Source: Patulibacter medicamentivorans (GTDB lineage Bacteria > Actinomycetota > Thermoleophilia > Solirubrobacterales > Solirubrobacteraceae). From it: a stretch of DNA of 64,000 nt. A model generated the notes under the pieces. That model did no database searches and was not told where the DNA came from. It saw only the letters and a program-made list of their open reading frames with translations. The stretch spans positions 1-64,000 of the forward strand of contig NZ_AGUD01000011.1 of NCBI RefSeq assembly GCF_000240225.1, read 5' to 3'. Within the stretch, counting starts at the first letter, position 1. Each line of letters begins with the position of its first letter. Below, in pieces: positions 6,075 through 28,365 of the stretch. The position numbers and the translations under genes are program-made.

Positions 6075-6110
6075 GACGATGAGGCTCGTCGCCGATCGAG
6101 GAGGAGCGGC

Positions 6111-11506: not shown

Positions 11507-11531
11507 GGGTCACTCGAATGGAGGAGAGGAC

Positions 11532-12854
11532 ATGAGGAACTGGCTCAAGCTGGTCTGTACGTTGGCGCTCGTCGGCGCGCTGGGAGCGTTCGCCAGCGGC
11601 TGCGGAGGGTCCGACGGGGACCAGGGCGGTGGCGGTGGCTCGGCCGGTCCGCCGAACCCGGCGACGGTCAAGGGCAAGATCGTCGTCTGGGACGTCTTCT
11701 ACAAGTCGTTCCCGAGCTACACGAAGGCGGTCCCGAAGCTCGACGAGGCGTTCAAGCGGAAGTACCCGAACGTCGAGGTCGAGCACGTGGCGCAGCCGTT
11801 CGGCGAGTACGCGGCGCTGCAGCAGGCGGCGTTCACCGGACGCCAGGGGCCGGACGTGATGATGATGCCGAACGCCGGCAGCCTCCGACAGTTCCAGAAG
11901 GGGCTGGAGGAGCTGAACGACCGGATCACGCCGGAGCAGCAGGAGCAGCTGACCGGCTGGGAGACCGTGACGCCGGGCTACCAGGTCGAGGGCCCGCACT
12001 ACGGCGTGCCGATCGCCCAGACCGACTTCATGTTCTATTTCAACAAGAAGCTCTTCCGGAAGGCCGGCCTGCCGACCGACTTCCAGCCGAAGAGCTGGGA
12101 GGACCTCCGGGACGCGGGCCTGAAGCTGAAGGCGGCCGGCATCCAGCCGTTCACCGGCGGCAACAAGGAGGGCTACGAGTCGCAGTGGTGGTGGCACATG
12201 GCGTGGCCGACGGTCAACACCAAGGAGCAGGCGATCGCGCTCGCCGAGGGCAAGCTGCCCTTCACCGATCCGGCCGTCGCCAGGACCTTCGAGCCCGAGC
12301 TGATGATGCAGAAGGCCGGGCTGTTCGAGAAGGACCGCTTCACCACGCCGTTCTTCAACGACGGCTACCTGCGCTTCGCCGACGGCAAGGGCGCGATGGT
12401 CCTCGGCGGCTCGACGAACACCGCCTACTGGGGCGACTTCAACAAGGCGCTCGGCCAGGAGAACGTCGGGATGTTCCTTCCGCCGGGCAGCAAGTACGTG
12501 TCGATGCAGCCCGAGTGGAGCTGGTCGATCCCGAAGTTCGCCAAGAACAAGGACGCCGCCTGGGCGTACATCGACTTCATGGCGGGCAAGGAGGCGACCC
12601 GGATGCTCTTCGACCTGACCGGCGAGCTGCCCAGCCGCAAGGACGTGCCGCTGCCGGCCGACGCGCCGCCCCAGGCCCGTCAGATCCGCGACTGGTACCG
12701 CGACAAGCCGACGTTCATCGCGACCGACGTGCTGGTCCCCAGCCAGGTCACGCAGACGATGAACACGGAGGCGAAGGAGGTGCTCCAGGGCCGCCGGTCG
12801 CTGGAGGACATGCTGAAGGCGGTCCAGGCGACGTTCGACAAGGTCAACCGGTAG
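11532..12854 (+). CDS. Carbohydrate ABC transporter substrate-binding lipoprotein
   Basis: 440 residues. The N-terminal signal ends in the lipobox FASGC, placing the lipidated Cys at residue 24, followed by a Gly/Ser-rich linker. The mature part is a family-1 extracellular solute-binding protein (KIVVWDVFY, GVPIAQTDFMFYFNKKLFRKAG, MVLGGSTN), typical of importers for oligosaccharides and glycosides. A GGAGAGGA ribosome site lies just upstream. Two permeases and an ATPase follow in order, a complete CUT1-type importer. A strong hairpin directly after it probably allows higher expression of the binding protein than of the permeases. Confidence 0.93.
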   Translation: MRNWLKLVCTLALVGALGAFASGCGGSDGDQGGGGGSAGPPNPATVKGKIVVWDVFYKSFPSYTKAVPKLDEAFKRKYPNVEVEHVAQPFGEYAALQQAAFTGRQGPDVMMMPNAGSLRQFQKGLEELNDRITPEQQEQLTGWETVTPGYQVEGPHYGVPIAQTDFMFYFNKKLFRKAGLPTDFQPKSWEDLRDAGLKLKAAGIQPFTGGNKEGYESQWWWHMAWPTVNTKEQAIALAEGKLPFTDPAVARTFEPELMMQKAGLFEKDRFTTPFFNDGYLRFADGKGAMVLGGSTNTAYWGDFNKALGQENVGMFLPPGSKYVSMQPEWSWSIPKFAKNKDAAWAYIDFMAGKEATRMLFDLTGELPSRKDVPLPADAPPQARQIRDWYRDKPTFIATDVLVPSQVTQTMNTEAKEVLQGRRSLEDMLKAVQATFDKVNR

Positions 12855-12876
12855 CCGGGCCCGGTCCACGAACCCG

Positions 12877-13827
12877 ATGACCGCTTCCCCGGATACCCCG
12901 TCCGTCGGCGGGCCCGCGCAGGTGCGCGGGCCCGCCCGGGGCACCCGCCTGCGCCGCGCCGCGGCACGGGCCACGCCGCTGTTCCTGCTGGCGCCGGCGC
13001 TGGCGCTGCTCGCGTGGCTGATGGTGTTCCCGGCCGCCGACGCGGTGCGCCTGGCGTTCACCGACTGGGACGGCTTCTCCGACCCGAAGTGGATCGGGCT
13101 CGACAACTTCAAGGACCTGCTGAGCGACGACCGCTTCACGCAGGCGCTGACCCACAACCTGATCATCATCGCGGTCCTGCCGATCTGGATCGCGGTCCCC
13201 TACAGCCTGGCCTGGGGCCTGCACCGCAAGATCCCGGGCTGGCGCTTCTTCCGCTTCGCCTTCTTCCTGCCGGTGGTCCTGTCGCCGGTCGTGATCGGCG
13301 TGTACTACGGGATGTTCCTCGATCCCAACGGGCCCTTCAACGGGCTGCTGCGGGCGATCGGGCTCGGCGGGCTGGCGCGCGAGTGGACCAACGAGCCGGG
13401 GATCGCGCTGCCGGTCGTGATCGTGATCGTGATCTGGTGGACGCTCGGGATCGGGGTCCTGATCTTCCTCAGCGCGCTCTCGAACCTCGACGGCGAGCTG
13501 GAGGACGCCGCCCGCGTCGACGGCGCATCGCGCTGGCAGATCCAGCGTCACGTGATCTTCTGGCAGATGCGCCCGGTGATCCAGTTCTGGGCGATCATCA
13601 TCGTGATCCTCTCGTTCACGTCGTTCTTCCCCCTGATCTACACCCTGACCGAGGGTGGACCGGGATTCGCGACGGCGACCGTCGACTTCTACCTGTACCA
13701 AGAGGCGTTCGACAACGGGAACCTCGGCTACGCCAGCGCCGTCGCGGTCGCGCTCGTGGTGGTGATCGGCTCGGTGTCCGGTCTGGCCGTGGCGCTCCTG
13801 CGCGGACGCAGGAAGGCGATCCGATGA
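12877..13827 (+). CDS. Sugar ABC transporter permease (MalF/UgpA type)
   Basis: 316 residues with about six membrane segments, the first at about residues 33-52 (PLFLLAPALALLAWLMVF). The ATPase-docking EAA loop reads EDAARVDGAS and is followed about ten residues later by a Pro. There is no clear ribosome site at 12877, and the first 20 codons form a 14-bp hairpin; an in-frame GTG at 12922 is a possible shorter start. The stop overlaps the next gene by 4 bp (ATGA). Confidence 0.9.
   Translation: MTASPDTPSVGGPAQVRGPARGTRLRRAAARATPLFLLAPALALLAWLMVFPAADAVRLAFTDWDGFSDPKWIGLDNFKDLLSDDRFTQALTHNLIIIAVLPIWIAVPYSLAWGLHRKIPGWRFFRFAFFLPVVLSPVVIGVYYGMFLDPNGPFNGLLRAIGLGGLAREWTNEPGIALPVVIVIVIWWTLGIGVLIFLSALSNLDGELEDAARVDGASRWQIQRHVIFWQMRPVIQFWAIIIVILSFTSFFPLIYTLTEGGPGFATATVDFYLYQEAFDNGNLGYASAVAVALVVVIGSVSGLAVALLRGRRKAIR
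12907..12936 (+). other. Perfect 14-bp hairpin at the 5' end of the permease gene
   Basis: 12907-12920 and 12923-12936 are perfectly complementary (GGCGGGCCCGCGCA with its reverse complement). It begins 53 bp after the binding-protein stop. It could stabilise the upstream mRNA end, partly terminate transcription, or limit permease translation. It lacks a T tract. Confidence 0.6.
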
Positions 13828-14702
13828 GCACGCAGACGGTGGCGGGACGGGCGCGCTGGGCGCCGGGGAGCGCCGCCCGGATCGGGCGCCGCGGCAGGCG
13901 GGTGGCGGTCTGGCTGATCTTCGCGACGCTCGCGGCCTCGACGATCTACCCGCTCTTCTTCCTGCTCTCGACGGCGCTGCGCACGTCCGAGGACTACCGC
14001 CGCGCGCCCGGCGGGCTGCCGCACGAGCTGACGTTCGACAACGTCCAGCGGGCGTTCTCCGAGATGGACATCGGCCGGCTGGCGCTGAACTCGCTGCTGG
14101 TCGTGGTGCCGGCGGTGCTGCTGCTGACGGTGCTCTCCTGCCTCGCGGCCTATGCGCTGGTCCACTTCGAGTTCCCGCTGCGGCGCACGACGCTGGCGAT
14201 CGTGGCGGCGCTGATGGCGCTGCCGCCGGCGGCGATCGTGATCCCGATCTTCAAGGCGATCCTCGACGTCAACCTGCTGAACAACCGGCTCGGGCTGATC
14301 CTGGCCTACGCCGCGCTCCAGCTGCCGTTCAGCATCTTCCTGCTGGCGTCGTTCATGCGCGCGGTCCCCGGCGAGCTGCTGAAGGCGGCGATGCTCGACG
14401 GCGCCGGTCCGCTGCGCACGCTCTGGTCGGTGGTGCTGCCGCTCGTCCGGCCGGGGCTGCTGACGTTGATGACGCTCAACTTCCTGTTCCTGTGGAACGA
14501 GTTCCTCTACTCGCTGGTGCTGCTCCAGCGCGAGCCGGAGCGCACGATGATGGTCGGGATCGGCCAGTTCCAGGGCCACTTCGACCAAAGCCTGGGGATC
14601 GTCTCCGCGGGCCTGATGATGTCGATGATCCCGCCGCTGCTGATCTTCTTCTTCTTCCAGCGCGACCTGGCCCGGGGCCTGACCACCGGAGCGCTGAAGT
14701 GA
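13824..14702 (+). CDS. Sugar ABC transporter permease (MalG type)
   Basis: 292 residues with six predicted membrane segments after an Arg-rich N-terminus. The EAA motif is [15 protein letters not shown] followed by LPLVRPG. It forms the import channel with the preceding permease. The ATG overlaps that gene's TGA (13824-13827), implying coupled translation and 1:1 production. Confidence 0.93.
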
Positions 14703-14769
14703 GCCGCTCGCACCCGCTCTTCGACGCCCGCACGGGCGACACGACCACCGCTACCTCGAGGGAGACGCC

Positions 14770-15955
<1,186 letters not shown>

Positions 15956-15966
<11 letters not shown>

Positions 15967-17173
15967 CCGCGGCGTCGCCTACGTCGAGCCGGGCAAGGTC
16001 GAGGTCCGGAGCATCGACTTCCCCAGCTTCGAGCTGCGGGACGGTCCCGGGGTCCACCCGGCCAACGTCGGCCGCAAGCTGCCGCACGCGGCGATCGTCA
16101 AGTGCGTCACGACCAACATCTGCGGCTCCGACCAGCACATGGTCCGCGGTCGCACGACCGCCCCCGAGGGCCTGATCCTCGGCCACGAGATCACCGGCGA
16201 GGTGATCGAGGTCGGCCCGGACGTCGAGTTCGTCCAGGTCGGCGACCTCTGCTCGGTCCCGTTCAACATCGCCTGCGGCCGCTGTCGCCGCTGCAAGACC
16301 GGCGACACGGGCGTCTGCCTGAACGTCAACCCCGATCGTCCCGGATCCGCCTACGGCTACGTCGACATGGGCGGTTGGGTCGGCGGCCAGGCCGAGTACG
16401 CGGTGGTGCCCTACGCCGACTGGAACCTGCTCAGGTTCCCCGACCGGGAGCAGGCGCTGGAGAAGATCCTCGACCTGACGATGCTCTCCGACATCTTCCC
16501 CACCGGGTACCACGGGGCGGTGACGGCGGGCGTCACCTCGGGCTCGACCGTCTACGTCGCCGGCGCCGGGCCGGTCGGCCTCGCGGCCGCCCACTCGGCG
16601 CAGCTGCTCGGCGCGGCGGTGGTGATCGTCGGCGACCTGATCCCCGAGCGGCTGGCGCAGGCGCGCAGCTTCGGCTGCGAGACGATCGACGTCTCGGCGG
16701 GCGACCCGAAGGACCAGATCGAGCAGATCCTCGGCGTGCCCGAGGTCGACGCGGCGATCGACGCGGTCGGCTTCGAGGCGCGCGGGCACGGGGGCGACGC
16801 CGGCCACGAGGCGCCGGCCACCGTCCTCAACTCGATCATGGACGTGACCCGGGCGGCCGGCAAGCTCGGCATCCCGGGCCTCTACGTCACCGGAGATCCC
16901 GGCGCCGTCGACGACGCCGCGAAGGAGGGATCGCTGTCGATCCGGATCGGGCTCGGGTGGGCGAAGTCGCACAGCTTCGCCACCGGCCAGTGCCCGGTGA
17001 TGCGCTACCACCACGGCCTGATGCAGATGATCCTCAACGATCGCGCCCAGATCGCCAGCGCGGTCAACGCGACGGTGATCGGGCTCGACGACGCGTCGCG
17101 GGGCTACGGCGACTTCGACCGGGGCGCCGCCTGCAAGTACGTGATCGACCCGCACGGCATGGTCGGGCGATGA
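15956..17173 (+). CDS. fdhA: Glutathione-independent formaldehyde dehydrogenase (zinc, NAD-linked)
   Basis: 405 residues. From memory it follows the Pseudomonas putida FdhA sequence closely throughout: NRGVxYxxxGKVEV, [33 protein letters not shown]-like structural-zinc cysteines, and [13 protein letters not shown] for NAD binding. The catalytic zinc ligands (Cys in ICGSD, His in GHE) are present. The enzyme oxidises formaldehyde to formate with tightly bound NAD. Being inside an operon with three P450s, it most simply disposes of formaldehyde released by oxidative O- or N-demethylation. The chosen ATG (15956) overlaps the ATPase gene by 11 bp. Confidence 0.9.
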
Positions 17174-18141
17174 CCTGGCGAGAGGACTGGGTCGCGCCCG
17201 ACGCCGCGCTCTACGGCGACGACGCCTGGGCCCACCACGACCTCGCCGTCACCGCCGACCAGCGGCTCGTCGGCTTCCGCTCCGGCGGCGATCGCTTCTG
17301 GTCGCTCGACGCCGACGGCCGGTTCGCGGAGGAGTGGGCCAGCGACCTCCACGAGGGGCACGGGCTGACGCTCGCCGGTCCCGCCGGGGCGGAGGAGCTG
17401 TGGGTCGCCGACCCCGGCATCACGTTCGCCCGCGACGCCGAGGGCGTCCACGACGCCGTGCTGTCCCGCGTCCACGGCCGGGTCGTGGCCTTCGACCTGG
17501 CCGGCAACCGGATCGCCGAGCTGCCGACCCCGGGCTGGCCGGCCTACGACGCCGGCGAGACCTACCGGCCGACGACCGTCGTGGTCGACGACGCCGGCGA
17601 CGGCTCGGTCTGGGTCGCCGACGGCTACGGCGCCGAGCTGGTCCACCGCGTCACGCGCGAGGGCGAGCTGCTGCGCACGCTCAGCGGCGTCGAGGGCGCC
17701 GGCCGGTTCGATTGCCCCCACGGGCTGCTGATCGACCGCCGCCGGCCGGACGACCCGCAGCTCTACGTGACCGATCGCGGCAACGACCGGATCGTCGTCT
17801 ACGACCTCGACGGCAACTTCCTGCGAGCGATCGTCGAGGGCCTGCGCGCGCCGAGCGGGCTGGCGGTCCGCGGCGACGACCTGGTCGTCGCCGAGCTGGG
17901 CGCCCGGCTGACGATCCTCGACCGCGACGATCGCGTCGTCGAGCGGATCGGCGACGACCCGCGGGCCACCGCGCGCCCGGGGTGGCCGAACGCCCTCGAC
18001 GCCGACGGGCGCACCGTGCGCCCCGAGCTGCGGCCCGGGAGCTTCAACAGCCCCCACGGGCTGGCGGTCGACGCCGCCGGGCGGATCTACGTCGCCGAGT
18101 GGGTCCTGGGCGGGCGGATGGTCCGCGTCGAGCGAGGGTGA
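17170..18141 (+). CDS. NHL-repeat/SMP-30-like beta-propeller protein
   Basis: 323 residues made of repeated propeller blades: VWVADGYGAELVHRVT, LYVTDRGNDRIVVYDLDG, SPHGLAVDAAGRIYVAEWV. There is no signal peptide, so it is cytoplasmic. Similar six-bladed proteins act as lactonases or lyases, or bind ligands; the blade motifs do not settle which. A lactonase for a sugar or aglycone lactone would fit its place between a dehydrogenase and a P450. ATGA overlap with fdhA; only one base separates it from the third P450. Confidence 0.7.
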   Translation: MTWREDWVAPDAALYGDDAWAHHDLAVTADQRLVGFRSGGDRFWSLDADGRFAEEWASDLHEGHGLTLAGPAGAEELWVADPGITFARDAEGVHDAVLSRVHGRVVAFDLAGNRIAELPTPGWPAYDAGETYRPTTVVVDDAGDGSVWVADGYGAELVHRVTREGELLRTLSGVEGAGRFDCPHGLLIDRRRPDDPQLYVTDRGNDRIVVYDLDGNFLRAIVEGLRAPSGLAVRGDDLVVAELGARLTILDRDDRVVERIGDDPRATARPGWPNALDADGRTVRPELRPGSFNSPHGLAVDAAGRIYVAEWVLGGRMVRVERG

Positions 18142-18142
18142 G

Positions 18143-19363
18143 ATGGGGCGCCAGCAGCCCACGACCACCGCGACGGCGCCCGTCGTCCTGCCGCTCGGGC
18201 GGGAGGGCCTCTTCGATCCGCCGGCTGCGCTGGCCGCCCTGGCGGCCGCCGGCGCGGTGCGGCGCCTGCACTACGCCGACGGGCAGGTCGGCTGGCTCGT
18301 GACGTCCTACGACGCGGCGCGCCGCGTGGTCGCGGACCGCCGGCTCGCGGTGGTGATGGCGCAGCCGGTCGGCGACTCCGCCACCCAGGCGACCTTCGAC
18401 GAGGCGATCGGCGGGCTCGACGACGGCTTCGTCAGCCTCAAGGAACCACCCGACCACACCCGTCTGCGGCGCGCGGTCGCGGCGCGCTTCACCCCGGGGC
18501 GGGTCGCCGAGCGGCGGGCCCGGATCGAGGCGATCGTCGCCGACCTGCTGGATGCGATCGAGCGATCGGGCCCGCCGGCGGACCTGCGCCCCGCGTTCGC
18601 GCTGGCGATCCCGTCGCGGGTGATCTGCGAGCTGCTCGGGGTGCCGGCGAGCGACGAGCACCGGTTCCTGCACCCGACCGAGGTGATGCTCGATTCCGCC
18701 GCGACGCCCGAGCGGACGGCCGCGGCCTTCCGCGACTTCGCCGACTACGTGCGCGAGGTCGTCGCCCGCAAGCACGCCGATCCCCGGGACGACCTGCTGA
18801 CCGACCTGGCCCACGGGGACGACCTGGACGACCGCGAGCTGGCCGGGATGGCGATGGAGCTGTTCATCACCGGCCACGAGACGACGGCCAACGCGATCGC
18901 GCTCGGGACCCTGGCGCTGCTGCGCGACCGCGACGCCTGGCGGTCCCTCTGCGCCGACCCGGCGCTGATCGAGGAGTGGAGCGAGGAGCTGCTGCGCCAC
19001 CTGTCGATCGTCGAGCAGAGCTTCACCCGCGTCGCCAGCGAGGACGTCGAGCTGGACGGCGTGACGATCCGCGCCGGCGAGCGGGTCACGGTGTCGCTGC
19101 TGACGGCGAACCGCGATCCCGCCCGGTTCGCCGAGCCCGACGAGCTGCGGCCCGACCGCGGCGCACGCGGGCACCTCGCGTTCGGGCACGGCATCCACAA
19201 GTGCCTCGGCCAGCACCTGGCGCGGGTCGAGCTGCAGGTGGCGCTGGCCGGGCTCGCCCGCCGCTTCCCGACGTTGCGACTCGCCGAGCCGGTGGAGCGC
19301 CTGCCGCTCGAGAGCGCCGACGTCGGCGTCTACCGCGCGCTCGCGCTGCCCGTCAGCTGGTAG
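18143..19363 (+). CDS. Cytochrome P450 (third of three)
   Basis: 406 residues with TGHETT in the I-helix (243-248), EELLR, and haem loop FGHGIHKCLG with Cys at about 354. It is the last gene of the operon and shares the DPPAALAALAAAG/GWLVTSYDAA N-terminal layout of the other two. Its 3' end overlaps the convergent rhamnosidase gene by 11 bp, leaving no room for a conventional terminator between them. Confidence 0.93.
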   Translation: MGRQQPTTTATAPVVLPLGREGLFDPPAALAALAAAGAVRRLHYADGQVGWLVTSYDAARRVVADRRLAVVMAQPVGDSATQATFDEAIGGLDDGFVSLKEPPDHTRLRRAVAARFTPGRVAERRARIEAIVADLLDAIERSGPPADLRPAFALAIPSRVICELLGVPASDEHRFLHPTEVMLDSAATPERTAAAFRDFADYVREVVARKHADPRDDLLTDLAHGDDLDDRELAGMAMELFITGHETTANAIALGTLALLRDRDAWRSLCADPALIEEWSEELLRHLSIVEQSFTRVASEDVELDGVTIRAGERVTVSLLTANRDPARFAEPDELRPDRGARGHLAFGHGIHKCLGQHLARVELQVALAGLARRFPTLRLAEPVERLPLESADVGVYRALALPVSW

Positions 19364-21839
19364 CCGCCGACAGCTCGTGCCGGCCCGGCCCCAGCTGCCG
19401 TCGCGCGCCGCCCCACGCGACGTCGAGCGGGACCGGGCTGTCGATCGCGAGCCGTCCGCTGCCGGCGTCGGCCCGCACCCGCAGCGGACCGCGGGGCGTC
19501 GGCGCCGTGCCCTCGGCCCACGCCAGGTCGCCCAGCGCCGGGGCGACGCGGGCGCGGGCGAAGCCCGGCTCGGCCGGTTGCACGCCCAGGGTGTGGACGA
19601 TCAGGTCGCGGGTCGGGGTCGCGCTCCAGCCGTGGCAGTGCGAGCCGCCGACCCACGTCTCCGGCCAGCTGCGCTCGCCCGCCCGCACGAAGGCGCCCCA
19701 GTCGCGGCAGGCGTCGGCGACGAGGTCGGCGCGGCCGGCCTCCGCCAGCGCGTCGTGGACGACGTAGCGGAAGAACGGCTGCGCCTCGAGGATCCGTGTC
19801 TCCTGGTCCCAGGTCGGCTCCGGGTTGCCGTGGGCGACGAGGTCGGCCCCGGCTTCCAGGTGGCCGCTGCCCAGCCGCTCGAAGGCGGGGGCCGAGTGCG
19901 CCAGGTGGCGGCGGTCGGCCAGGATCGAGGCCAGCCCGGGCAGCCGCGCGGCGGGCACGATCCCGGCGCAGATCGCGGCCGCGTTGGCGTGACGGCTCGC
20001 CGCCGGGCGCACGCTGCCGGCCACGCGGTGGTCGCGGTAGAGCGCCCGTCTCGGGTCCCAGAAGACCTCGAACCCGGTGGCCACGTCGCGGCGCAGGCCG
20101 CGCGCCCACGACGCGCGGTGGCCGTCGCCGAGCCACTCCGCCAGCTCCTCGAAGTCGCGCAGCCCGCGCGCCCAGAGCGCGTTCAGCGCCGCGCTCGTGC
20201 CGGCCACCGGGACCGCGCTCCAGTCGATCAGCACCCATCCCGGGACCTCGGCGAGCAGCCCGTCCGGGCCGCGGTAGGGGAGGAACCAGCGCAGCACGCG
20301 CTCGCAGCTGGCCAGCAGCGACGCCACCAGGTCGCGGTCTCCGGCGTAGCGCATCAGGTTGTGGACGGCGCGGATCCAGTGCAGCGCCCAGTCGGGGATG
20401 TAGCTGCCCTCGAGCGGGCCGCCGCCCAGGTTCGAGCAGACCGCCATCGGCAGCATCCCGTCGCTGCGCGGCGCGTCGGCGAGGACCGGGTGCCAGCGCG
20501 CCAGCGACCAGTCCCCGGCCGTCGCCAGGTGCACCGACTGGTGGACGACGAAGTCCCCGGTCCAGGCGCGAGCCTCGCGGGTCGGGCAGTCGATGTAGGC
20601 GTCCTGCGAGCAGAGCTCGACCGTGCGCAGCCCGATCGCGAAGACCTCGTTCAGCAGCTCGTCGCTGCAGCGGAACGGCGTCGACGAGCCGCGGGCCCGC
20701 GGGAACAGCCGCTCGCGGACCGCGACCCGCAGGCGCACCGGCCCCTCGGCGCGGATCGCCGCGACCGCGTGACGGCCCCCCAGCGGGTCGAAGGACTCGT
20801 GGTCGTCGTCGTCGCCGCGGGCGACGTAGCGCAGGCCGGCGTGGGCGAACGCGGGCACGAGCAGCCCGGCGTCGTCGACCTCCTCGCCCAGCGCGATGTC
20901 GATCCGGGTCCCCGCCGGCGCCTCGACGCCGAGCCGCAGCATCCCGGCGACGGTCTCGCCGAAGTCGAGGGCGACCAGGTGCGTGCCGCCGGGGACCTCG
21001 ACGGACCCGTCGGCGGCCAGCGCGACGCGCCGCGAGGCCGCCGCGGTCCGCTGGTCGGCGATCACCTGTGCGACCGGGTCGTCGGCGGCCGTCGCCGGAA
21101 CGGTGGCGGCCGCTGACAGCGCCGCCGCGACCGGCCGGCGGACGTCGCCGGAGAGCTGGGGGATCGGTCGCGGCGGCAGCGGGCCGTACGGGTCGCTGGG
21201 CGGCTCGAGGATGCCGAGGTAGCCGTCGTTGCGCGGGTCGATCGGCGTGGCGCGCGGCCACGCGGCGTCGTCGAAGTCGGGCGCGGTCCAGCCTGCGGGG
21301 AGCTGTCGCGCGTCGACCATCTCGCGCGGGAACCCGGTGCCGTCCTCGAACGAGCGCGGCCCCGGCGTCCAGGCGTCCCCGGCCAGCGCCCGCCAGCGCT
21401 CGTCGGTCGCGATCACCCGATCGCCCGAGAGCCGCAGCTCGGCCGCCACCGCCGCTCCGCCGAGGCCGAGGGTCACCGGCGACGGCAGCCACCACGAGGT
21501 CGGGGTCCCGTAGTACCGGGCGAGGATCGCGATCGCGTTGCGGCCCGGGCGCAGGCGCCCGGCCGCGTCGACCAGCTCGCAGCGGGTGCTGCGAGCGTCG
21601 GCGCGGATCGGCCCGCGGGCCACCTCGTGGCCGTTCACCCAGACCACGAGCCGCGAGTTGGCGACCGCCCGCAGCGGCGCCGCGCCGGGCACCTCGGCCA
21701 GGTCGAAGGCCCGCCGCAGGAGGACGAAGCGGTCGTGGACGGCGAGGTCGACCGCGCCGGCCATGAGGCCGGGCCGGTGGCCGGTGTCGCCCAGCCACAC
21801 CCACCTCGCGTCCCACCGGTAGGGCAGCTCCAAGGTCAT
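19353..21839 (-). CDS. GH78 alpha-L-rhamnosidase
   Basis: 828 residues with GH78 architecture: N-terminal beta-sandwich domains (VVWVNGHEVARGP), an (alpha/alpha)6 barrel with the catalytic-region signature DCPTREARAWTGD, and near the end FHGWSATPT-like SHCHGWSATPT with a C-terminal beta domain. No signal peptide is seen, so it probably acts on imported glycosides, releasing L-rhamnose. I chose the ATG at 21839 (MTLELPYRW) because the upstream ATG at 21866 lies inside the LacI-type operator. The product feeds the rhamnose isomerase at 23.1 kb. Confidence 0.88.
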   Translation of the reverse strand: MTLELPYRWDARWVWLGDTGHRPGLMAGAVDLAVHDRFVLLRRAFDLAEVPGAAPLRAVANSRLVVWVNGHEVARGPIRADARSTRCELVDAAGRLRPGRNAIAILARYYGTPTSWWLPSPVTLGLGGAAVAAELRLSGDRVIATDERWRALAGDAWTPGPRSFEDGTGFPREMVDARQLPAGWTAPDFDDAAWPRATPIDPRNDGYLGILEPPSDPYGPLPPRPIPQLSGDVRRPVAAALSAAATVPATAADDPVAQVIADQRTAAASRRVALAADGSVEVPGGTHLVALDFGETVAGMLRLGVEAPAGTRIDIALGEEVDDAGLLVPAFAHAGLRYVARGDDDDHESFDPLGGRHAVAAIRAEGPVRLRVAVRERLFPRARGSSTPFRCSDELLNEVFAIGLRTVELCSQDAYIDCPTREARAWTGDFVVHQSVHLATAGDWSLARWHPVLADAPRSDGMLPMAVCSNLGGGPLEGSYIPDWALHWIRAVHNLMRYAGDRDLVASLLASCERVLRWFLPYRGPDGLLAEVPGWVLIDWSAVPVAGTSAALNALWARGLRDFEELAEWLGDGHRASWARGLRRDVATGFEVFWDPRRALYRDHRVAGSVRPAASRHANAAAICAGIVPAARLPGLASILADRRHLAHSAPAFERLGSGHLEAGADLVAHGNPEPTWDQETRILEAQPFFRYVVHDALAEAGRADLVADACRDWGAFVRAGERSWPETWVGGSHCHGWSATPTRDLIVHTLGVQPAEPGFARARVAPALGDLAWAEGTAPTPRGPLRVRADAGSGRLAIDSPVPLDVAWGGARRQLGPGRHELSAATS

Positions 21840-21852
21840 CCCGTGCCTGCGC

Positions 21853-21880
21853 AGGGTAGCAGGCATTGAAACGCTTCAGG
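21853..21880 (-). promoter_or_regulatory. LacI-type operator and weak promoter of the rhamnosidase gene
   Basis: ATTGAAACGCTTCAGG (21865-21880, plus-strand reading) matches the other LacI-type sites. On the minus strand CCTGAA (21880-21875), 16 bp, TACCCT (21858-21853) is a possible promoter. The predicted start would be about 7 bases from the ATG at 21839, another near-leaderless mRNA. Confidence 0.6.
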
Positions 21881-21923: not shown

Positions 21924-22970
21924 CTAGGCCCGGATCGGGGAGCGATCCGGCGCCGCGTCGATCGCCGCCCCGGTCGACGCGCGGACCACCAGCTCGGGCG
22001 CGAAGACCACCCGCTCGTGCTTGTGCTTCTCGTCGTCCGCCTCGTCCAGCAGCTGCTCCGCCGCCCGCCGGCCGAGCTCGTAGGCGGGCTGGCGCACCGA
22101 CGTCAGCGGCACGAACGCCATCGTGGCGAAGGCGACGTCGTCGTAGCCGACGATCGCGAAGTCCTCGGGGACTCGATGGCCCGCCGCGATCAGCGCGTGC
22201 TCGACGCCGAGCGCCAGCAGGTCGTTGGCGCAGAAGATGCCGGTCGGAAGCTGCTCGCCGGCGAGCAGCTTCCGGGCGGCCTCCTCGCCGGCGTCGATCG
22301 TCATCTGCTCGGCCTCGATGTCGGCGCCGGCGAGCAGCTGCGCTCCGGCGGCCTCGGCGGCGGCCAGGAAGCCCGTGCGCCGGTCGGCGCACTGGCTCCA
22401 GTCGCGCGGGCCGTTGACGAGCGCCAGGCGCCGGTGCCCCAGCTCGCACAGGTGCTCGCCGGCGAGCCGGCCGCCGGCGACGTCGTCCACGGAGACGCTG
22501 CACTGGTCCTTGCTGGCGCTGCGCTGGTCGAGCATGACCACCGGCGTGCCGGTCTTGCGCATCCGGCCGTAGACGCGCGAGTTGCCCTTGCCGACCCGCG
22601 TCGCGAGGATCCCGGCCACCCGCTGCTCCTCGAGCTGCCGCAGCTGGCGGCGCTCGTGCGCGGGGTCGCCGGCGAAGCTGCAGACCACGACGACGTACCC
22701 GGCCTCGCCGGCGACGTCCTCGACCCCCCGGTAGACCTCGGCGAAGAACGGGTTGCCGATGTCGAGGACGATCAGCCCGATCGCGGGGTTCCGGGCCCCG
22801 GTCATCTGGCGGGCCGCGGCGCTCGGCACGAAGTGCAGCTCGTCGATCGCCGCCTGGATCGACGCGAGCGTCTTCTCGGCGACGATCTCGGGTCGGTTGA
22901 GCGCGTTCGACACGGTGCCGACGGAGACGCCGGCGCGCTCGGCGACGTCGAGGATGGTCCGACGCCTCAT
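21924..22970 (-). CDS. LacI-family transcriptional repressor
   Basis: 348 residues from the ATG at 22970. It has a LacI helix-turn-helix (TILDVAERAGVSVGTVSNAL), a hinge region with PSAAARQM, and a periplasmic-binding-protein-like effector domain (IGLIVLDIGNPFFAE, VGYDDVAFATM). An upstream GTG at 23048 would add 26 residues and sits about 6 bases from a predicted transcription start, so the start is uncertain. It lies between the rhamnosidase and rhamnose isomerase genes, and CG-centred palindromes occur at both promoters and at two more near 2 and 3.5 kb. The effector is probably L-rhamnose or a rhamnoside. Confidence 0.9.
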   Translation of the reverse strand: MRRRTILDVAERAGVSVGTVSNALNRPEIVAEKTLASIQAAIDELHFVPSAAARQMTGARNPAIGLIVLDIGNPFFAEVYRGVEDVAGEAGYVVVVCSFAGDPAHERRQLRQLEEQRVAGILATRVGKGNSRVYGRMRKTGTPVVMLDQRSASKDQCSVSVDDVAGGRLAGEHLCELGHRRLALVNGPRDWSQCADRRTGFLAAAEAAGAQLLAGADIEAEQMTIDAGEEAARKLLAGEQLPTGIFCANDLLALGVEHALIAAGHRVPEDFAIVGYDDVAFATMAFVPLTSVRQPAYELGRRAAEQLLDEADDEKHKHERVVFAPELVVRASTGAAIDAAPDRSPIRA

Positions 22971-23060
22971 TTCGGCCAACGATACTTGCTGCCGGAGCGG
23001 CATCTGCCCCGAGCGCGGGCGGCCCGGGCGGCCCGGCTCGATCGCCACGCCGGCGGCGGC

Positions 23061-23091
23061 ACTATGAAGCGTTTCAAATTCTTGTTAGGCT
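23061..23091. promoter_or_regulatory. Divergent lacI / rhamnose isomerase promoter region with LacI-type operator
   Basis: TATGAAGCGTTTCAAA (23063-23078) is a CG-centred palindrome (six of eight positions). For the plus strand an extended -10 TGTTAGGCT (hexamer TAGGCT 23086-23091) lies 17 bp from a poor -35 (TATGAA). For the minus strand CTAACA, 17 bp, CATAGT (23066-23061) places the operator in the spacer, as at 2.0 and 3.5 kb. Confidence 0.65.
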
Positions 23092-23147: not shown

Positions 23148-24302
23148 TTGGCCAGGACCAGCGCTGAGGTCGAGCAGCAGCTCTCGCGACTCGAGATCGA
23201 GACTCCCTCGTGGGGGTACGGCGACTCGGGGACCCGCTTCGCCACGTTCTCGCAGCCGGGCTGCCCGCGCGACCCGTTCGAGCGGATCGACGACGCCGCC
23301 GAGGTCCACCGGCTGACGGCGGCGGCCCCGGCGGTCGCGCTGCACTTCCCGTGGGACCGGGTCGACGACGTCGCGGCGCTGCGCCGCCACGCCGAGTCGC
23401 ACGGCCTGCGGATCGGCGCGGTCAACCCGAACCTCTTCCAGGAGCCCGAGTACAAGCTGGGCTCGATCGCCAACCCGGATCGCGCGGTGCGCCAGCGCGC
23501 CGTCGCGCACCTGGTGGAGTGCGTGCGGATCGCCACCGAGCTCGGGTCGACCGCCCAGTCGCTGTGGCTCGCGGATGGCGTCAACTACGTCGGGCAGGAC
23601 GACCTCCGCGACCGTCGCGAGCGGATCCTCGAGTGCCTCCAGGAGGTCTACGCGGAGCTGCCCCCCGAGCAGCAGCTGCTGCTCGAGTACAAGCCGTTCG
23701 AGCCGGCCTTCTACGCGACGGACCTCGCCGACTGGGGCTCGGCGCTGCTCTTCTGCCAGCGGCTGGGGGAGCGGGCGGCGGTGCTGGTCGACATCGGCCA
23801 TCACCTCCACGGGGCCAACATCGAGCAGATCGTCGCGATCCTGGCCGCCGAGGGCCGCCTCGGCGGCTTCCACTTCAACGGCCGCCGCTACGCCGACGAC
23901 GACCTGATCGTCGGCTCGGTGAACCCGTTCGAGCTGTTCGCCATCTTCGTCGAGCTGGGCACCGAGCTGCCGCGCCTGACGATCGACCAGGCGCACAACG
24001 TCGAGGCCAAGGTCGAGGCGATGACGCTCTCGGTCGTCAACGTTCAGGAGGCCTACGCGAAGGCGCTGCTCGTCGACCGCGACGCGCTGGCGGCCGCGCA
24101 GGCCGACGGCGACGTGCTCGGGGCCCACGAGCTGCTCCTGGACGCCTTCCGCCGCGACGTCCGCGACCTCTGCGGCCGGGTGCGCGTGGCCGCCGGGGGC
24201 GTGGCCGACCCGGTGGCGGCGCTGCGCGAGTCCGGGTACGCCGAGCGGATCGCCCGCGAGCGGGGGAGCGTGGCCGCCGTCTCGGCCGGAGGCAACGGAT
24301 GA
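23148..24302 (+). CDS. rhaI: L-rhamnose isomerase, TIM-barrel RhaI type
   Basis: 384 residues starting with TTG (GAAAGGA ribosome site upstream). The N-terminus LEIETPSWGYGDSGTRF is characteristic of the RhaI group, distinct from the enteric RhaA. Metal-site residues of the xylose-isomerase-like barrel are visible in LLEYKPFEP, VDIGHHLHGANIEQ and GFHFNGRRYADDD. It converts L-rhamnose to L-rhamnulose in the cytoplasm. First gene of an operon under the LacI-type operator; its stop overlaps the next start (24299-24302). No rhamnulose kinase or aldolase follows, so the rest of the route must be elsewhere or differ. Confidence 0.88.
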   Translation: MARTSAEVEQQLSRLEIETPSWGYGDSGTRFATFSQPGCPRDPFERIDDAAEVHRLTAAAPAVALHFPWDRVDDVAALRRHAESHGLRIGAVNPNLFQEPEYKLGSIANPDRAVRQRAVAHLVECVRIATELGSTAQSLWLADGVNYVGQDDLRDRRERILECLQEVYAELPPEQQLLLEYKPFEPAFYATDLADWGSALLFCQRLGERAAVLVDIGHHLHGANIEQIVAILAAEGRLGGFHFNGRRYADDDLIVGSVNPFELFAIFVELGTELPRLTIDQAHNVEAKVEAMTLSVVNVQEAYAKALLVDRDALAAAQADGDVLGAHELLLDAFRRDVRDLCGRVRVAAGGVADPVAALRESGYAERIARERGSVAAVSAGGNG

Positions 24303-25666
24303 GCGGCGACGACCCGCGCGCGCACGCGCTCCCGGGTCGTCTCGCGCCGGACCAGCTCCGCTCGCTGGTCGCCTCGGGCGAGGTCGACCAGGTCCTGCTC
24401 GCCTTCGTCGACATGCAGGGCCGGCTCCAGGGCAAGCAGCTCGGCGCCCCCTACTTCGTCTCCGACGTCCTCGACCACGGCGCCGGCGCCTGCAGCTACC
24501 TGCTCAGCGTCGACGTCGAGATGGCGCCCCAGGAGGGGCTCTCGACGAGCAGCTGGGAGACCGGCCACGGCGACTTCTCGCTGATCCCCGACCTCGCCTC
24601 CCTGCGGCTGGCCGCCTGGCGGCCGCGGACCGCGATCTGCGTCGCCGACGCGGTCTGGCCCGGCGGCGATCCGGTGCTCCCGTCGCCCCGGCAGATCCTG
24701 CGACGGCAGGTCGAGCGCCTGGCGGAGCGCGGCTGGACCGCCAGCACCGCGACCGAGCTGGAGTTCATCGTCCATCGCGAGAGCTACGCCGAGGCTCGCC
24801 GGCGCCACTACCACGACCTGACGCCGGTCAGCGACCACAACGTCGACTACTCGCTGCTGGGGCTGCGCGCCGGCGCCCCGCTGCTCGACCGGCTGGCCGC
24901 CGAGATGCCGCGCTCCGGCCTGGCGCTGGAGTCCGTCAAGGGCGAGGCGAATCTCGGCCAGTTCGAGATCAACTTCCGCCACTCGGCGCCGCTCGACGCC
25001 GCCGACGGCCACTCGATCTTCAAGCACGCGGTCAAGGAGATCGCCGCGCAGGAGGGCGTCTCGGCGACCTTCATGGCCAAGTGGGACGAGCGCGAGGGCA
25101 ACTCGTGCCACCTGCACCTGTCGCTCGCCGACGCCGAGGGCCCGCTGTTCGCCCGCGACCGGCGGACCTTCGACGGGTTCCTCGCCGGCCAGCTGGCGTA
25201 CACGCGCGAGCTGACGCTGCTCCTGGCCCCCAACGTCAACTCGTACAAGCGCTTCGCGGGCCACTCCTTCGCCCCGACCGCGATCGCCTGGGGGCGCGAC
25301 AACCGCACCTGCGCGCTGCGGGTCGTCGGCGACGGCGGCTCGCTGCGGATCGAGCATCGCGCCCCCGGCGGCGACGTCAACCCCTACCTGGCGCTGGCCG
25401 CGATGATCGCCGCCGGCCTCCGCGGGATCGACGAGGGACTGGTGCCGGAGCCGGCCACCGAGGGCAACGCCTACGCGTCGAGCGCCCCGCGGCTGCCGGC
25501 CACGCTCGACGACGCGGTGGCCGCGTTCCGTGCCAGCGAGGTTGCGGCGCAGGCCTTCGGCCCCGAGATCGTCGCCCACTACGCGCGCGCCGGGGAGATC
25601 GAGATCGAGGCCGCCCGAGCGGCCGTCACCGACTGGGAGAGGGTCCGCGGCTATGAGCGGCTCTGA
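24299..25666 (+). CDS. Glutamine-synthetase-like gamma-glutamyl-amine ligase (GlnA4/PuuA type)
   Basis: 455 residues with the GS fold: N-terminal beta-grasp (VDQVLLAFVDMQGRLQGK), catalytic TELEFIVHRESY, GQFEINFRH, GNSCHLHLSL, NVNSYKRF and RIEHRAPGGDVNPYLALAAM. The YxxxxRRxHYHDLTPVSDHNVDY insert is typical of the gamma-glutamylamine ligases used to consume putrescine, ethanolamine or other amines, rather than true glutamine synthetase. It would join glutamate to an amine using ATP. A gamma-glutamyl hydrolase overlaps it by 14 bp, giving the two ends of a gamma-glutamylation pathway. Confidence 0.85.
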   Translation: MSGDDPRAHALPGRLAPDQLRSLVASGEVDQVLLAFVDMQGRLQGKQLGAPYFVSDVLDHGAGACSYLLSVDVEMAPQEGLSTSSWETGHGDFSLIPDLASLRLAAWRPRTAICVADAVWPGGDPVLPSPRQILRRQVERLAERGWTASTATELEFIVHRESYAEARRRHYHDLTPVSDHNVDYSLLGLRAGAPLLDRLAAEMPRSGLALESVKGEANLGQFEINFRHSAPLDAADGHSIFKHAVKEIAAQEGVSATFMAKWDEREGNSCHLHLSLADAEGPLFARDRRTFDGFLAGQLAYTRELTLLLAPNVNSYKRFAGHSFAPTAIAWGRDNRTCALRVVGDGGSLRIEHRAPGGDVNPYLALAAMIAAGLRGIDEGLVPEPATEGNAYASSAPRLPATLDDAVAAFRASEVAAQAFGPEIVAHYARAGEIEIEAARAAVTDWERVRGYERL

Positions 25667-26453
25667 CGCGCGGCGCCGGCCGCTGATCGGCATCTGCGCC
25701 GCATGGGAGCAGGCCGCCTGGAGCTTCTGGGACCAGCAGGCCGCCGTCGTCGCCGGCACCTACCTGAGCGCCGTGCGACGCGCCGGCGGCACGCCCGTCG
25801 TGCTCGTCCCGGAGCCGCTCGCCGAGGCCCAGATCGAGTCGCACGGCGCCTGGCTCGACGGCCTGCTGCTGATCGGCGGCGCCGACCTCGATCCCGCGTC
25901 CTACGGGCAGCCGGCGGCGACGCGGACCGAGGCCACGGTCCCGCTGCGCGACGCGTTCGAGATCGCGCTCGTCCGGGCCGCGTTCGCCTGGGACCTGCCG
26001 GTCCTGGGCATCTGCCGCGGCCTGCAGATCCTCAACGTCGCGACCGGAGGCACCTTGCACCAGCACATCACGGACGCCGGGTTCGCCGAGCACCGTCCGC
26101 TGCCCGGCAGCCTGGGGGAGTCGACCCGCCACGCGGTCGTGGTCGAGCCCGGATCGTCGCTGGCCGTCGACGGCCCGGGGCCGATCACGGTCAACTCGCA
26201 CCACCACCAGGGGATCGACCGGGTGGGCGAGGACGGCCGGGTCGCGGCGCGCGCCGAGGACGGGCTCGTCGAGGCCGTGGAGTGGCCGCGGATGCGCCAC
26301 GCGCTCGGCGTGCAGTGGCACCCCGAGGAGCTGGAGCTGGACACGACGATCGCCGACCTGGTCGCGGCCGCCGCCGACCGCGCCCGCTCGCGGGTCCTCG
26401 TCGAGCGCCCCGTCGTCGAGGCCGAGAACGTCTTCCACGCGACGGAGGCCTGA
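25653..26453 (+). CDS. Class I glutamine-amidotransferase-like gamma-glutamyl hydrolase (PuuD family)
   Basis: 266 residues of the peptidase C26 fold: nucleophile Cys in GICRGLQILNV, and the His/Glu pair in QWHPEELE. It hydrolyses gamma-glutamyl amides (in E. coli gamma-glutamyl-GABA), releasing glutamate. The 14-bp overlap with the ligase gene argues for a shared pathway. The amine is unknown. Confidence 0.87.
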   Translation: MSGSDARRRPLIGICAAWEQAAWSFWDQQAAVVAGTYLSAVRRAGGTPVVLVPEPLAEAQIESHGAWLDGLLLIGGADLDPASYGQPAATRTEATVPLRDAFEIALVRAAFAWDLPVLGICRGLQILNVATGGTLHQHITDAGFAEHRPLPGSLGESTRHAVVVEPGSSLAVDGPGPITVNSHHHQGIDRVGEDGRVAARAEDGLVEAVEWPRMRHALGVQWHPEELELDTTIADLVAAAADRARSRVLVERPVVEAENVFHATEA

Positions 26454-26456
26454 GCG

Positions 26457-27626
26457 ATGCCGCAGATCATCCCGCCGTTCGGCAACCACCTCCCGGTCCG
26501 GATCCGGTTCGGCGACGGCGTCGCGAACGAGCTGCCCGAGATCGTCCGCGAGATCGGCGCCGGCAGCGCGCTGATCGTGGTGGACGACGGCCTCGAGCAG
26601 GTCAACCCGGCGGTCCGCGACGCGCTGGACGCGCTCGCCGCCACCGGGATCGAGGTCTTCCGCAGCCCGAAGGGCGCCGGCGAGCCGCGCGGGGCGGACG
26701 TCGACCGCGCCGCCGCCGGGTTGCGCGCGAGCGGCGCCGGCGTCGTCGTGGCGATCGGCGGCGGCTCGGTGATCGACACCGCCAAGGCCGCCCGGCTGTG
26801 CGCGCAGCAGGGCCTGACGTTCGCCGGCTTCCTGGCCTCCGACCGTGCCGTCCCGCCCGCCGACGTGCCGCTGATCGCGATGCCGACGACCGCGGGCACG
26901 GGCTCGGAGGTCTCGGGCGGCGCCGTCGTCTTCGACGACCACTCGGGGACCAAGGCCGGGATCGCGAGCCCGAACCTGCGCGCCGAGCACGCGATCGTCG
27001 ATCCGCTCCTGACCCACTCGACGCCGCCGGCGACGACGGCGTTCAGCGGGATCGACGCGATCGCGCAGGCGATCGCCGGGATGGTCGCGCGGACGCGGAC
27101 GCCGATCGGCGACGCGATCGCGCTGGAGGCGATCCGGCTCGGAGGGCGCTCGCTCGTCGCGGCCTACCGCGACGGCTCCGACGCGGCGGCACGCTCGGAG
27201 ATGGCCTGCGCCAGCCTGCTCGCCGGGCTGACGATGAACATCTCGGACTGCGCCGCGGAGCACTCGCTGGCGCAGGCGATCGGGAGCCGGACCGGAGCTC
27301 CGCACGGCCTCACGGTGGGGCTGGTGCTGGTGGAGACGCTGGAGCGCGAGCGGCAGGTCGTCCCGGAGCAGCTGGAGCGGGTCGCCGATGCGCTCGGGGT
27401 CCCGCCGGACGGGAGCGCCGACGGCGGGCGCGCGGTCCGCGCCGTGCGCGAGCTGCTGCGCGAGCTGGACTTCCCGGTGCTCGGCTCGCTGGCCGTCCGC
27501 AGCGACCTCGACGATCTCACCAGGCACGCGATGGCGGACTTCTTCATCACCCAGTCGCCCCGGCCGTGGTCGGAGGCAGAGGTGCGGGCGGCCTTCGAAG
27601 GGGCACTCGCCCTGGTCGGACGCTGA
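26457..27626 (+). CDS. Iron-containing (group III) alcohol dehydrogenase
   Basis: 389 residues: NAD-binding GGGSVIDTAKA, AMPTTAGTGSE, and a C-terminal helical metal domain. The expected metal ligands Asp-His-His-His read Asp (GIDAIAQ), Gln instead of His, His (AEHSLAQ) and His (APHG). The His usually found four residues after the third ligand is also Gln. It would oxidise or reduce a short alcohol/aldehyde with NAD(P), for instance a gamma-glutamylated amino-alcohol or lactaldehyde/propanediol. It lies 3 bp after the hydrolase gene. Confidence 0.85.
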   Translation: MPQIIPPFGNHLPVRIRFGDGVANELPEIVREIGAGSALIVVDDGLEQVNPAVRDALDALAATGIEVFRSPKGAGEPRGADVDRAAAGLRASGAGVVVAIGGGSVIDTAKAARLCAQQGLTFAGFLASDRAVPPADVPLIAMPTTAGTGSEVSGGAVVFDDHSGTKAGIASPNLRAEHAIVDPLLTHSTPPATTAFSGIDAIAQAIAGMVARTRTPIGDAIALEAIRLGGRSLVAAYRDGSDAAARSEMACASLLAGLTMNISDCAAEHSLAQAIGSRTGAPHGLTVGLVLVETLERERQVVPEQLERVADALGVPPDGSADGGRAVRAVRELLRELDFPVLGSLAVRSDLDDLTRHAMADFFITQSPRPWSEAEVRAAFEGALALVGR

Positions 27627-27633
27627 GGCCGCG

Positions 27634-28365
27634 ATGTCGAACGCCGTCGATCGCGTGCGGATGCTCGGGCCGGTGTCGATCCCGAGCGCCGCCGAGGTGG
27701 TTGTCGCGCAGGTGACGAGGGCGATCGAGCTCGGCCGCTTCCTGCCGGGCGACCAGCTCCCGCCCGAGCGCGAGTTCGCGGTCCAGCTGGGGGTCTCGCG
27801 GATGACGCTGCGGGCCGCCCTGCGCGACCTCGAGGAGGCCGGGCTGCTGAATCGGGAGCGGCGGGGCTCGGGCGGCGGCACGCTGGTGATCGCCGCCGGG
27901 ACGATCGGCATCGGCGACGCCGAGCACCGCGCGCTGCGCAGCGAGCTGGAGGAGATCTTCGAGTTCCGCATCGCCTGCGAGTCGACGGCCGCCGAGCTCG
28001 CGGCCGGGCGGCGGACCGACGCGCACCTGGCGCAGCTCGAGCGGGCGATCGAGGACCTCGGGTCCGGGCTCACCGCGAGGCGCTTTCGCGCCGCCGACAA
28101 CGCCTTCCACCTGGCCGTCGCCGACGCCGCCGGCAACCGCTGGCTGCGGCAGGCGGTCGAGGACGCCCGGGCGGCGATGTTCACGCCGTTCGACACCGCG
28201 CGCTTCGAGCTGGTCGTCGCCAGCACCGTCGAGCACCACCGCCGGATCCTCGACGCGATCGCCGCCGGCGACCCCGAGCGCGCCCGGGCGAGCAGTATCG
28301 AGCACATCCACGAGGCGAAGCAGGAGATGCTCGTGGTGCTCGCGATCGCGGACCGTTCGGCCTGA
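27634..28365 (+). CDS. GntR-family regulator, FadR/FCD subfamily
   Basis: 243 residues: winged helix (LPPEREFAVQLGVSRMTLRAALRDLEEAG) plus an all-helical FCD domain with metal-binding candidates (FHLAVADAAGN, EHHRRILDAI). It follows the dehydrogenase by 7 bp in the same operon, so it probably tunes this sub-pathway in response to its own intermediate, layered on LacI control. Confidence 0.88.
   Translation: MSNAVDRVRMLGPVSIPSAAEVVVAQVTRAIELGRFLPGDQLPPEREFAVQLGVSRMTLRAALRDLEEAGLLNRERRGSGGGTLVIAAGTIGIGDAEHRALRSELEEIFEFRIACESTAAELAAGRRTDAHLAQLERAIEDLGSGLTARRFRAADNAFHLAVADAAGNRWLRQAVEDARAAMFTPFDTARFELVVASTVEHHRRILDAIAAGDPERARASSIEHIHEAKQEMLVVLAIADRSA

What the first reader, a model, noticed from the sequence alone, without database searches (positions are those of the whole stretch)
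23148..28365. Rhamnose isomerase fused by operon to a gamma-glutamyl-amine pathway
rhaI is followed, with 4- and 14-bp overlaps, by a GS-like gamma-glutamyl ligase and a PuuD-type hydrolase, then an Fe-ADH and GntR. In Streptomyces a GS-like ligase, an Fe-ADH and a gamma-glutamyl hydrolase process ethanolamine. Linking this to rhamnose isomerisation, with no rhamnulose kinase or aldolase, suggests that the regulon's natural substrate contains both rhamnose and an amine, for example an aminosugar glycoside or a rhamnosyloxy-benzylamine.
Basis: inference. Interest (0 to 1): 0.7.

Follow-up and report, generated by a model that had tools for sequence, protein, structure and literature searches.

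The report
Rhamnoside regulon carrying an amine-glutamylation cassette
Five actinobacterial genomes hold a shared, switch-controlled gene set that imports and breaks down rhamnose-bearing molecules, and the same switch drives enzymes that tag and oxidise an amino alcohol, which suggests that the natural food molecule carries both a rhamnose and an amino-alcohol part.

Summary
rhaI, a GS-like ligase, a PuuD-type hydrolase, an Fe-ADH and a GntR gene lie head to tail with the stated overlaps. The link is more than a local accident. In 399 genomes of the class, close orthologues of this ligase occur in five only; all five carry PuuD and Fe-ADH beside it, four also ALDH. The promoter-proximal LacI operator (ATGAARCGTTTCAA) is conserved in all five, and in one single-contig genome (G032) that promoter drives the amine cassette directly, without rhaI. 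Where flanks are held (four genomes), the regulon also covers three P450s, a GH106 (in three also GH78) rhamnosidase, an ABC importer and a formaldehyde dehydrogenase. Best reading: the amine is an alkanolamine released from an imported rhamnoside; the ligase is sister to GlnA4, not inside it. The compound is unknown. A speculative fit is mycobacterial glycopeptidolipid (O-methyl-rhamnosyl-alaninol on a D-peptide).

The parts
23148..24302 (+). rhaI, L-rhamnose isomerase (only RhaI found in the genome)
   Evidence: TIGR02635 522.9 bits vs cut-off 531.35; RhaI structures E 5e-95; single match in own genome
24299..25666 (+). GS-like gamma-glutamyl-amine ligase, clade sister to GlnA4-type
   Evidence: PF00120 296 bits; tree; alignment: metal, glutamate and ATP residues kept, E327 replaced, F in flap as GlnA4
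25653..26453 (+). C26/PuuD-type gamma-glutamyl hydrolase, C-H-E motifs present
   Evidence: PF07722 212 bits; alignment
26457..27626 (+). Fe-ADH, predicted gamma-glutamyl-amino-alcohol dehydrogenase (metal-motif His replaced by Gln, conserved in its relatives)
   Evidence: PF00465
27634..28365 (+). GntR-FCD regulator, part of the cassette in G032 and G431 (80%, 73%)
23064..23077 (+). LacI-type operator before rhaI; same site before rhaB in G146, G147, G431 and before the GS-like gene in G032
21924..23048 (-). LacI-family regulator, presumed regulator of the regulon
   Evidence: PF00356/PF13377; 78-85% in G146, G147, G032
19353..21866 (-). GH78 alpha-L-rhamnosidase, no signal peptide seen; start probably 21839
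   Evidence: PF17389; N-terminus; conserved in G147, G032
21866..21879 (+). operator before GH78
   Evidence: same in G147 and G032
18143..19363 (+). cytochrome P450 (P450b)
   Evidence: PF00067
17170..18141 (+). NHL beta-propeller protein
   Evidence: PF01436; 72-82% in relatives
15956..17173 (+). FdhA, glutathione-independent formaldehyde dehydrogenase
   Evidence: TIGR02819 728 bits, over cut-off 637; 91-95% in three relatives
11532..15966 (+). ABC importer: lipoprotein SBP (11532-12854), permeases (12877-13827, 13827-14702), MalK-type ATPase (14770-15966)
10070..11506 (+). AraA/FucI-like isomerase
   Evidence: PF11762/PF02952; 85-89% in G146 and G147
6111..10073 (+). GH106 alpha-L-rhamnosidase, no signal peptide seen
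   Evidence: PF17132 37 bits vs 29; 70-81% in three relatives
4845..6074 (+). cytochrome P450 (P450c); the ORF 4850-6082 is a shadow frame
3574..4815 (+). cytochrome P450 (P450a), operator at 3546-3559
2092..3393 (+). S12 serine hydrolase with a secretion-like N-terminus, related to D-peptidases; operator at 2026-2039
   Evidence: 49-56% in G146 and G032, each with an operator

Best explanation
The cassette is one arm of a LacI-controlled catabolic regulon for an imported rhamnoside whose other part yields a primary amino alcohol. The ABC importer brings the rhamnoside in. Cytosolic GH106 and GH78 release L-rhamnose. P450s oxidise the molecule, probably removing methyl groups, and FdhA deals with the formaldehyde. 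Rhamnose is consumed by RhaI (this operon) and RhaB/RhaE (another contig here, the same operon in relatives). The released amine is joined to glutamate by the GS-like ligase. The Fe-ADH oxidises the hydroxyl to an aldehyde, an ALDH oxidises that to an acid, and the PuuD-type hydrolase splits the gamma-glutamyl amino acid into glutamate and an amino acid. This genome lacks the ALDH in the operon; the 61% relative on contig C331 may stand in. Shown: gene content, conserved order, operator sequences, families, key residues, absence of visible signal peptides on the rhamnosidases. Inferred: the reactions, LacI binding, the amine, and the P450 role.
For: Gene order in G146, G147, G431, G032 and the window. 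The same LacI operator-promoter stands before rhaI here, rhaB in three relatives, and the ligase itself in G032, whose own rhaI is about 430 kb away. Four operators in the window against 0.63 expected, 0 of 100 shuffles reaching 4, and matching sites in the relatives. Co-occurrence in 399 class genomes: the GH106 orthologue in 4, all within the 5 that have the ligase. No other rhaI locus of the family survey carries a GS-like gene beside it, although several are cut by contig ends. Ligase residues. No amino-acid permease was found in the cassette, whereas the ordinary GlnA4-like cluster of the same genome has one. Both rhamnosidases lack a visible signal peptide and the SBP has a lipobox.
Against: No substrate or expression data. 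The ALDH is missing from the window's operon. Fe-ADH relatives at 55-60% stand in other contexts without a GS-like gene, so the Fe-ADH family itself does not prove an amino-alcohol role. A GS-Fe-ADH pair without rhamnose genes nearby exists in G147 (L009). Five genomes from two families may reflect few independent events. No ferredoxin partner for the P450s was recognised in the conserved block.
Confidence: 0.58

Rival explanations
1. The cassette is a second pathway for free ethanolamine, placed under the rhamnoside switch because rhamnose and ethanolamine occur together in decaying envelopes or plant matter, not in one molecule.
For: The ligase is sister to the GlnA4-type clade and shares its flap Phe; a ligase/Fe-ADH/hydrolase set of the same clade can stand without rhamnose genes (L009).
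Against: The same genome already has an ordinary GlnA4-like cluster with ALDH, SDR, permease and GntR on C331. The rhamnose-linked ligases differ at 18 positions from residues held by 85% or more of 78 GlnA4-type sequences. No permease was found in the cassette.
Confidence: 0.2
2. The Fe-ADH (and the relatives' ALDH) serve lactaldehyde from rhamnose, as FucO does; only the ligase and hydrolase concern an amine.
For: Fe-ADH gives a lactaldehyde reductase hit (165 bits); the RhaE aldolase step releases lactaldehyde.
Against: It is far below the equivalog cut-off (523). RhaEW-type enzymes oxidise lactaldehyde themselves (PMC3870299). Fe-ADH stays next to the ligase in L009 and in G032, where no rha gene is present at the locus.
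Confidence: 0.12
3. The ligase caps a toxic amine formed from the aglycone as detoxification, without feeding catabolism.
For: Gamma-glutamylation of toxic amines is known for polyamines in actinobacteria (PMC8998196, PMC11841054 abstracts); the ALDH is missing in the window.
Against: A hydrolase is always present and four of five genomes hold a complete oxidation route.
Confidence: 0.07
4. Chance operon fusion: unrelated genes joined by deletion.
For: The window's operon looks like a reduced form: rhaB, rhaE and ALDH are absent although relatives have them.
Against: Five genomes, same promoter, same cassette.
Confidence: 0.03

Closest known systems
GlnA4 ethanolamine cluster of Streptomyces coelicolor (SCO1610-SCO1615, PMC6529630)
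   Same: GS-like ligase with the E327 position replaced by Phe and the ammonium-site residues lost, amidotransferase-type hydrolase, aldehyde dehydrogenase (here in relatives only), regulator gene beside it
   Different: Fe-ADH instead of SDR, no amino-acid permease found, under a LacI-type rhamnoside switch, ligase in a separate sister clade; ALDH absent in the window
Actinobacterial L-rhamnose regulon with RhaEW and L-lactate dehydrogenase genes (PMC3870299)
   Same: rhaI, rhaB, bifunctional aldolase/dehydrogenase and lut/lld genes together; rhamnosidases and uptake of rhamnose-containing oligosaccharides
   Different: an amine cassette, three P450s and a formaldehyde dehydrogenase; the terms glutamine synthetase, glutamyl, amine and P450 do not occur in that survey's main text
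P450 oxidative demethylation of 6-O-methyl-galactose in porphyran degraders (PMC10033563)
   Same: P450 genes beside glycoside hydrolases, esterase and a zinc ADH in a sugar-utilisation cluster; formaldehyde as product
   Different: rhamnose instead of galactose, no ferredoxin or reductase recognised in the block; the link is an analogy only, P450 kinship was not tested

Membership tests
GlnA4-type gamma-glutamylethanolamide synthetase | metal, glutamate and ATP residues of GS kept | tested here: met
   alignment with own GlnA and a Streptomyces GlnA4-like sequence against the residue list in PMC6529630
GlnA4-type gamma-glutamylethanolamide synthetase | E327 position lost with Phe in the flap; D50 lost | tested here: met
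   GHSFAP against GYEAP in own GlnA; FDGSS motif absent
GlnA4-type gamma-glutamylethanolamide synthetase | falls inside the GlnA4-type clade | tested here: not met
   window, L007, L008, L009 form a separate clade (99/96), sister to the 79-row GlnA4-type clade (96/81)
GlnA4-type gamma-glutamylethanolamide synthetase | neighbourhood with SDR, ALDH, permease, regulator | tested here: not met
   Fe-ADH in place of SDR, no permease; ALDH in relatives only. The C331 paralogue of the same genome has ALDH, SDR, permease and GntR
GlnA4-type gamma-glutamylethanolamide synthetase | activity on ethanolamine | not testable with these tools
   needs enzyme assay
Glutamine synthetase (type I) | ammonium site (D50, E327) and equivalog score | tested here: not met
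   GlnA equivalog 178 bits vs cut-off 429
PuuD gamma-glutamyl-GABA hydrolase | C26 fold with Cys-His-Glu | tested here: met
   PF07722 212 bits; GICRG and QWHPE motifs
PuuD gamma-glutamyl-GABA hydrolase | equivalog score | tested here: not met
   NF008471 110.5 vs cut-off 266
L-rhamnose isomerase RhaI | equivalog score | tested here: inconclusive
   522.9 vs cut-off 531.35, full length
Lactaldehyde reductase FucO | equivalog score | tested here: not met
   TIGR02638 164.6 vs 523; Asp-x3-His motif reads Asp-x3-Gln
Glutathione-independent formaldehyde dehydrogenase FdhA | equivalog score | tested here: met
   TIGR02819 728.1 vs 636.95
Glycopeptidolipid utilisation (hypothesis) | growth on or breakdown of O-methyl-rhamnosyl-alaninol peptidolipid | not testable with these tools
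   only a gene-by-moiety match

The most novel reading that the evidence does not exclude
The regulon degrades mycobacterial C-type glycopeptidolipids or a close analogue. [quoted passage not shown] Each unusual gene would have a moiety: the secreted D-peptidase-like S12 hydrolase for the D-peptide, P450s and FdhA for the O-methyl groups, rhamnosidases and rhaI for rhamnose, and the ligase, Fe-ADH, ALDH and hydrolase for alaninol, giving alanine and glutamate. A search of the held papers on glycopeptidolipid, degradation and alaninol returned one veterinary review and, by its title and abstract, nothing on breakdown.
Probability: 0.12. Interest if true: 0.8.

Novelty: new variant of a known kind. 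Interest (0 to 1): 0.55.

Why it matters
It joins two known pathways, rhamnose catabolism and gamma-glutamyl amino-alcohol catabolism, in one switch-controlled unit shared by genomes of two bacterial families. That gives a concrete, testable prediction about an unknown natural substrate carrying rhamnose, an amino alcohol and probably methyl ethers. It also marks a ligase clade next to GlnA4 with a different predicted amine, which would help annotate the many GS-like proteins of actinobacteria.

Tried and rejected
The ORFs 4850-6082 and 10429-11535 were first taken as unknown genes; they are shadow frames of a P450 and an isomerase-like gene. L009 was first read as containing an ALDH between Fe-ADH and PuuD; Pfam shows a peptide-type solute-binding protein there. 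A DNA alignment of the promoters used wrong coordinates for two relatives and is not used; the sequences are. Fe-ADH relatives at 55-60% were fetched to see whether the family always stands with a GS-like gene; it does not. The clustering of specificity positions in residues 70-90 is suggestive only: 0.00075 for that fixed window but 0.064 for any window of that size. NHL and P450 structure hits did not narrow the substrate. No structure prediction was run: the ligase's amine site lies between subunits, so a monomer model would not settle it.
Full report
OBSERVATION. RhaI runs 23148-24302 from a TTG start; the GS-like gene 24299-25666 overlaps it by 4 bases (ATGA); the PuuD-type gene 25653-26453 overlaps the ligase by 14 bases; the Fe-ADH 26457-27626 follows after 3 bases and the GntR gene 27634-28365 after 7. 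Families: RhaI (TIGR02635, 522.9 bits, cut-off 531.35), GS catalytic domain, Peptidase C26, Fe-ADH, GntR-FCD.

WHAT STANDS AROUND IT. Upstream and on the same strand are P450a, P450c, a GH106 rhamnosidase, an AraA/FucI-like isomerase, an ABC importer, a glutathione-independent formaldehyde dehydrogenase (FdhA, over its curated cut-off), an NHL protein and P450b; on the other strand are GH78 and a LacI-family regulator. A palindrome TTGAARCGYTTCAA was sought with up to three mismatches; four sites were found, each with one mismatch, against 0.63 expected and no shuffle reaching four. The sites precede the S12 hydrolase, P450a, GH78 and rhaI.

COMPARATIVE EVIDENCE. A scan of genome contigs with the ligase gave two close relatives, the MAGs SZAS-10 (L007; G146, which by coordinates is also G378) and SZAS-9 (L008; G147, also G367), and further, more distant ones without rhaI nearby. 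In both close relatives the operon reads rhaB-rhaI-rhaE-ligase-PuuD-ALDH-FeADH-lutA-lutB-lutC. A survey of 399 genomes of the class added G032 and G431. G431 reads rhaB-rhaI-rhaE-lutABC-ligase-PuuD-ALDH-FeADH-GntR. G032, a single-contig genome, has the P450, GH106, ABC, FdhA, NHL, P450, GH78 and LacI block, and then ligase-PuuD-ALDH-FeADH-GntR directly, with its own rhaI about 430 kb away. The operator ATGAARCGTTTCAA, with much the same following bases, stands at the start of the operon in all five. So the constant partner of the cassette is the LacI rhamnoside switch rather than rhaI. Operators also recur before P450a, GH78 and the S12 hydrolase, and near the MalK gene, in relatives that have them.

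CO-OCCURRENCE. In the same 399 genomes the GH106 orthologue is in four (own, G032, G367, G378) and the close Fe-ADH orthologue in five; the ligase at 81% or more is in the same five. G431, the fifth, is 78% complete and its contig begins just before the operon, so the rest of the block could not be checked there. In 396 genomes of the phylum none but the own genome passed the ligase threshold. These genomes are related in part, so the count overstates independence. In the family survey 27 genomes (own included) have RhaI; none of the other loci fetched shows the ligase beside it, though some are cut by contig ends.

THE RHAMNOSE ARM. The window's genome has rhaE (72% to L008) with a rhamnulokinase-like FGGY kinase (409 bits, below the 528 cut-off) and a DeoR regulator on contig C303, and no second RhaI was found. 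RhaEW and lactate-oxidation genes in actinobacterial rhamnose regulons are known (PMC3870299).

THE AMINE ARM. The ligase keeps the GS metal, glutamate and ATP residues but has Phe in the flap where GS has E327, as reported for GlnA4, so a glutamine synthetase role is unlikely. In a tree of 89 rows the window, L007, L008 and L009 form a clade (99/96), sister to the GlnA4-type clade of 79 rows (the long outgroup branches were flagged by the program). Eighteen positions are fixed in the five rhamnose-linked ligases and differ from a residue held by about 85% or more of the 78 others, among them residues 70, 77, 78, 81, 90 and 217, which by alignment lie near the expected amine site. This points to a different amine but is not proof. 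The own genome also has an ordinary GlnA4-like cluster on C331 with ALDH, SDR, amino-acid permease and GntR. The Streptomyces precedent is SDR plus ALDH, of which only the GlnA4 step was shown (PMC6529630).

HOW IT MAY WORK. Both rhamnosidases lack a visible signal peptide and the SBP has a lipoprotein signal, so the rhamnoside is probably imported whole and cut inside. No amine permease is seen in the cassette, which fits an amine that arrives as part of the rhamnoside. FdhA is 91-95% identical among the four genomes with the full block, which suggests that formaldehyde is made there; P450 demethylation of a methoxy sugar is a known source (PMC10033563). The enzymes' actions are inferred.

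GLYCOPEPTIDOLIPID HYPOTHESIS. C-type glycopeptidolipids carry di- or tri-O-methyl rhamnose on L-alaninol at the end of a D-peptide (PMC5996870). The S12 hydrolase, with a secretion-like N-terminus, resembles the R61 DD-peptidase and alkaline D-peptidase and has an operator in the window, G146 and G032. The match is attractive gene by gene but wholly untested; probability 0.12.

LIMITS. No expression, binding or enzyme data. The close set is five genomes. The window lacks the ALDH.

Noticed in passing
33350-61538: Downstream of the operon lie a nitrilase-type hydrolase, a nitrile hydratase beta-like gene, an amidase, a haem aldoxime-dehydratase family gene, two ALDHs, a GMC oxidoreductase, an AMP-binding enzyme and a sugar-type ABC importer: possibly an aldoxime/nitrile pathway. 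Not conserved beside the regulon in the relatives' fetched stretches.
   Followed up: partly
26457-27626: The Fe-ADH metal motif Asp-x3-His reads Asp-x3-Gln; the Gln is conserved in its close relatives and in 55-60% relatives from other families.
   Followed up: partly
24299-24302 and 26453-26457: The window's operon looks reduced: rhaE and ALDH are missing at exactly the junctions where relatives have them, leaving a clean ATGA overlap and a 3-bp gap.
   Followed up: partly
L009:7983-14206: SZAS-9 has a second ligase of the same clade (70%) with Fe-ADH, a peptide-type solute-binding protein, PuuD and a second GS-like gene, and no rhamnose genes nearby.
   Followed up: partly
10070-11506: AraA/FucI-like isomerase in the regulon, 85-89% in G146 and G147, not seen in the G032 block; possible role on a second deoxysugar.
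   Followed up: no
17170-18141: Conserved NHL propeller between FdhA and P450b, role unknown.
   Followed up: no
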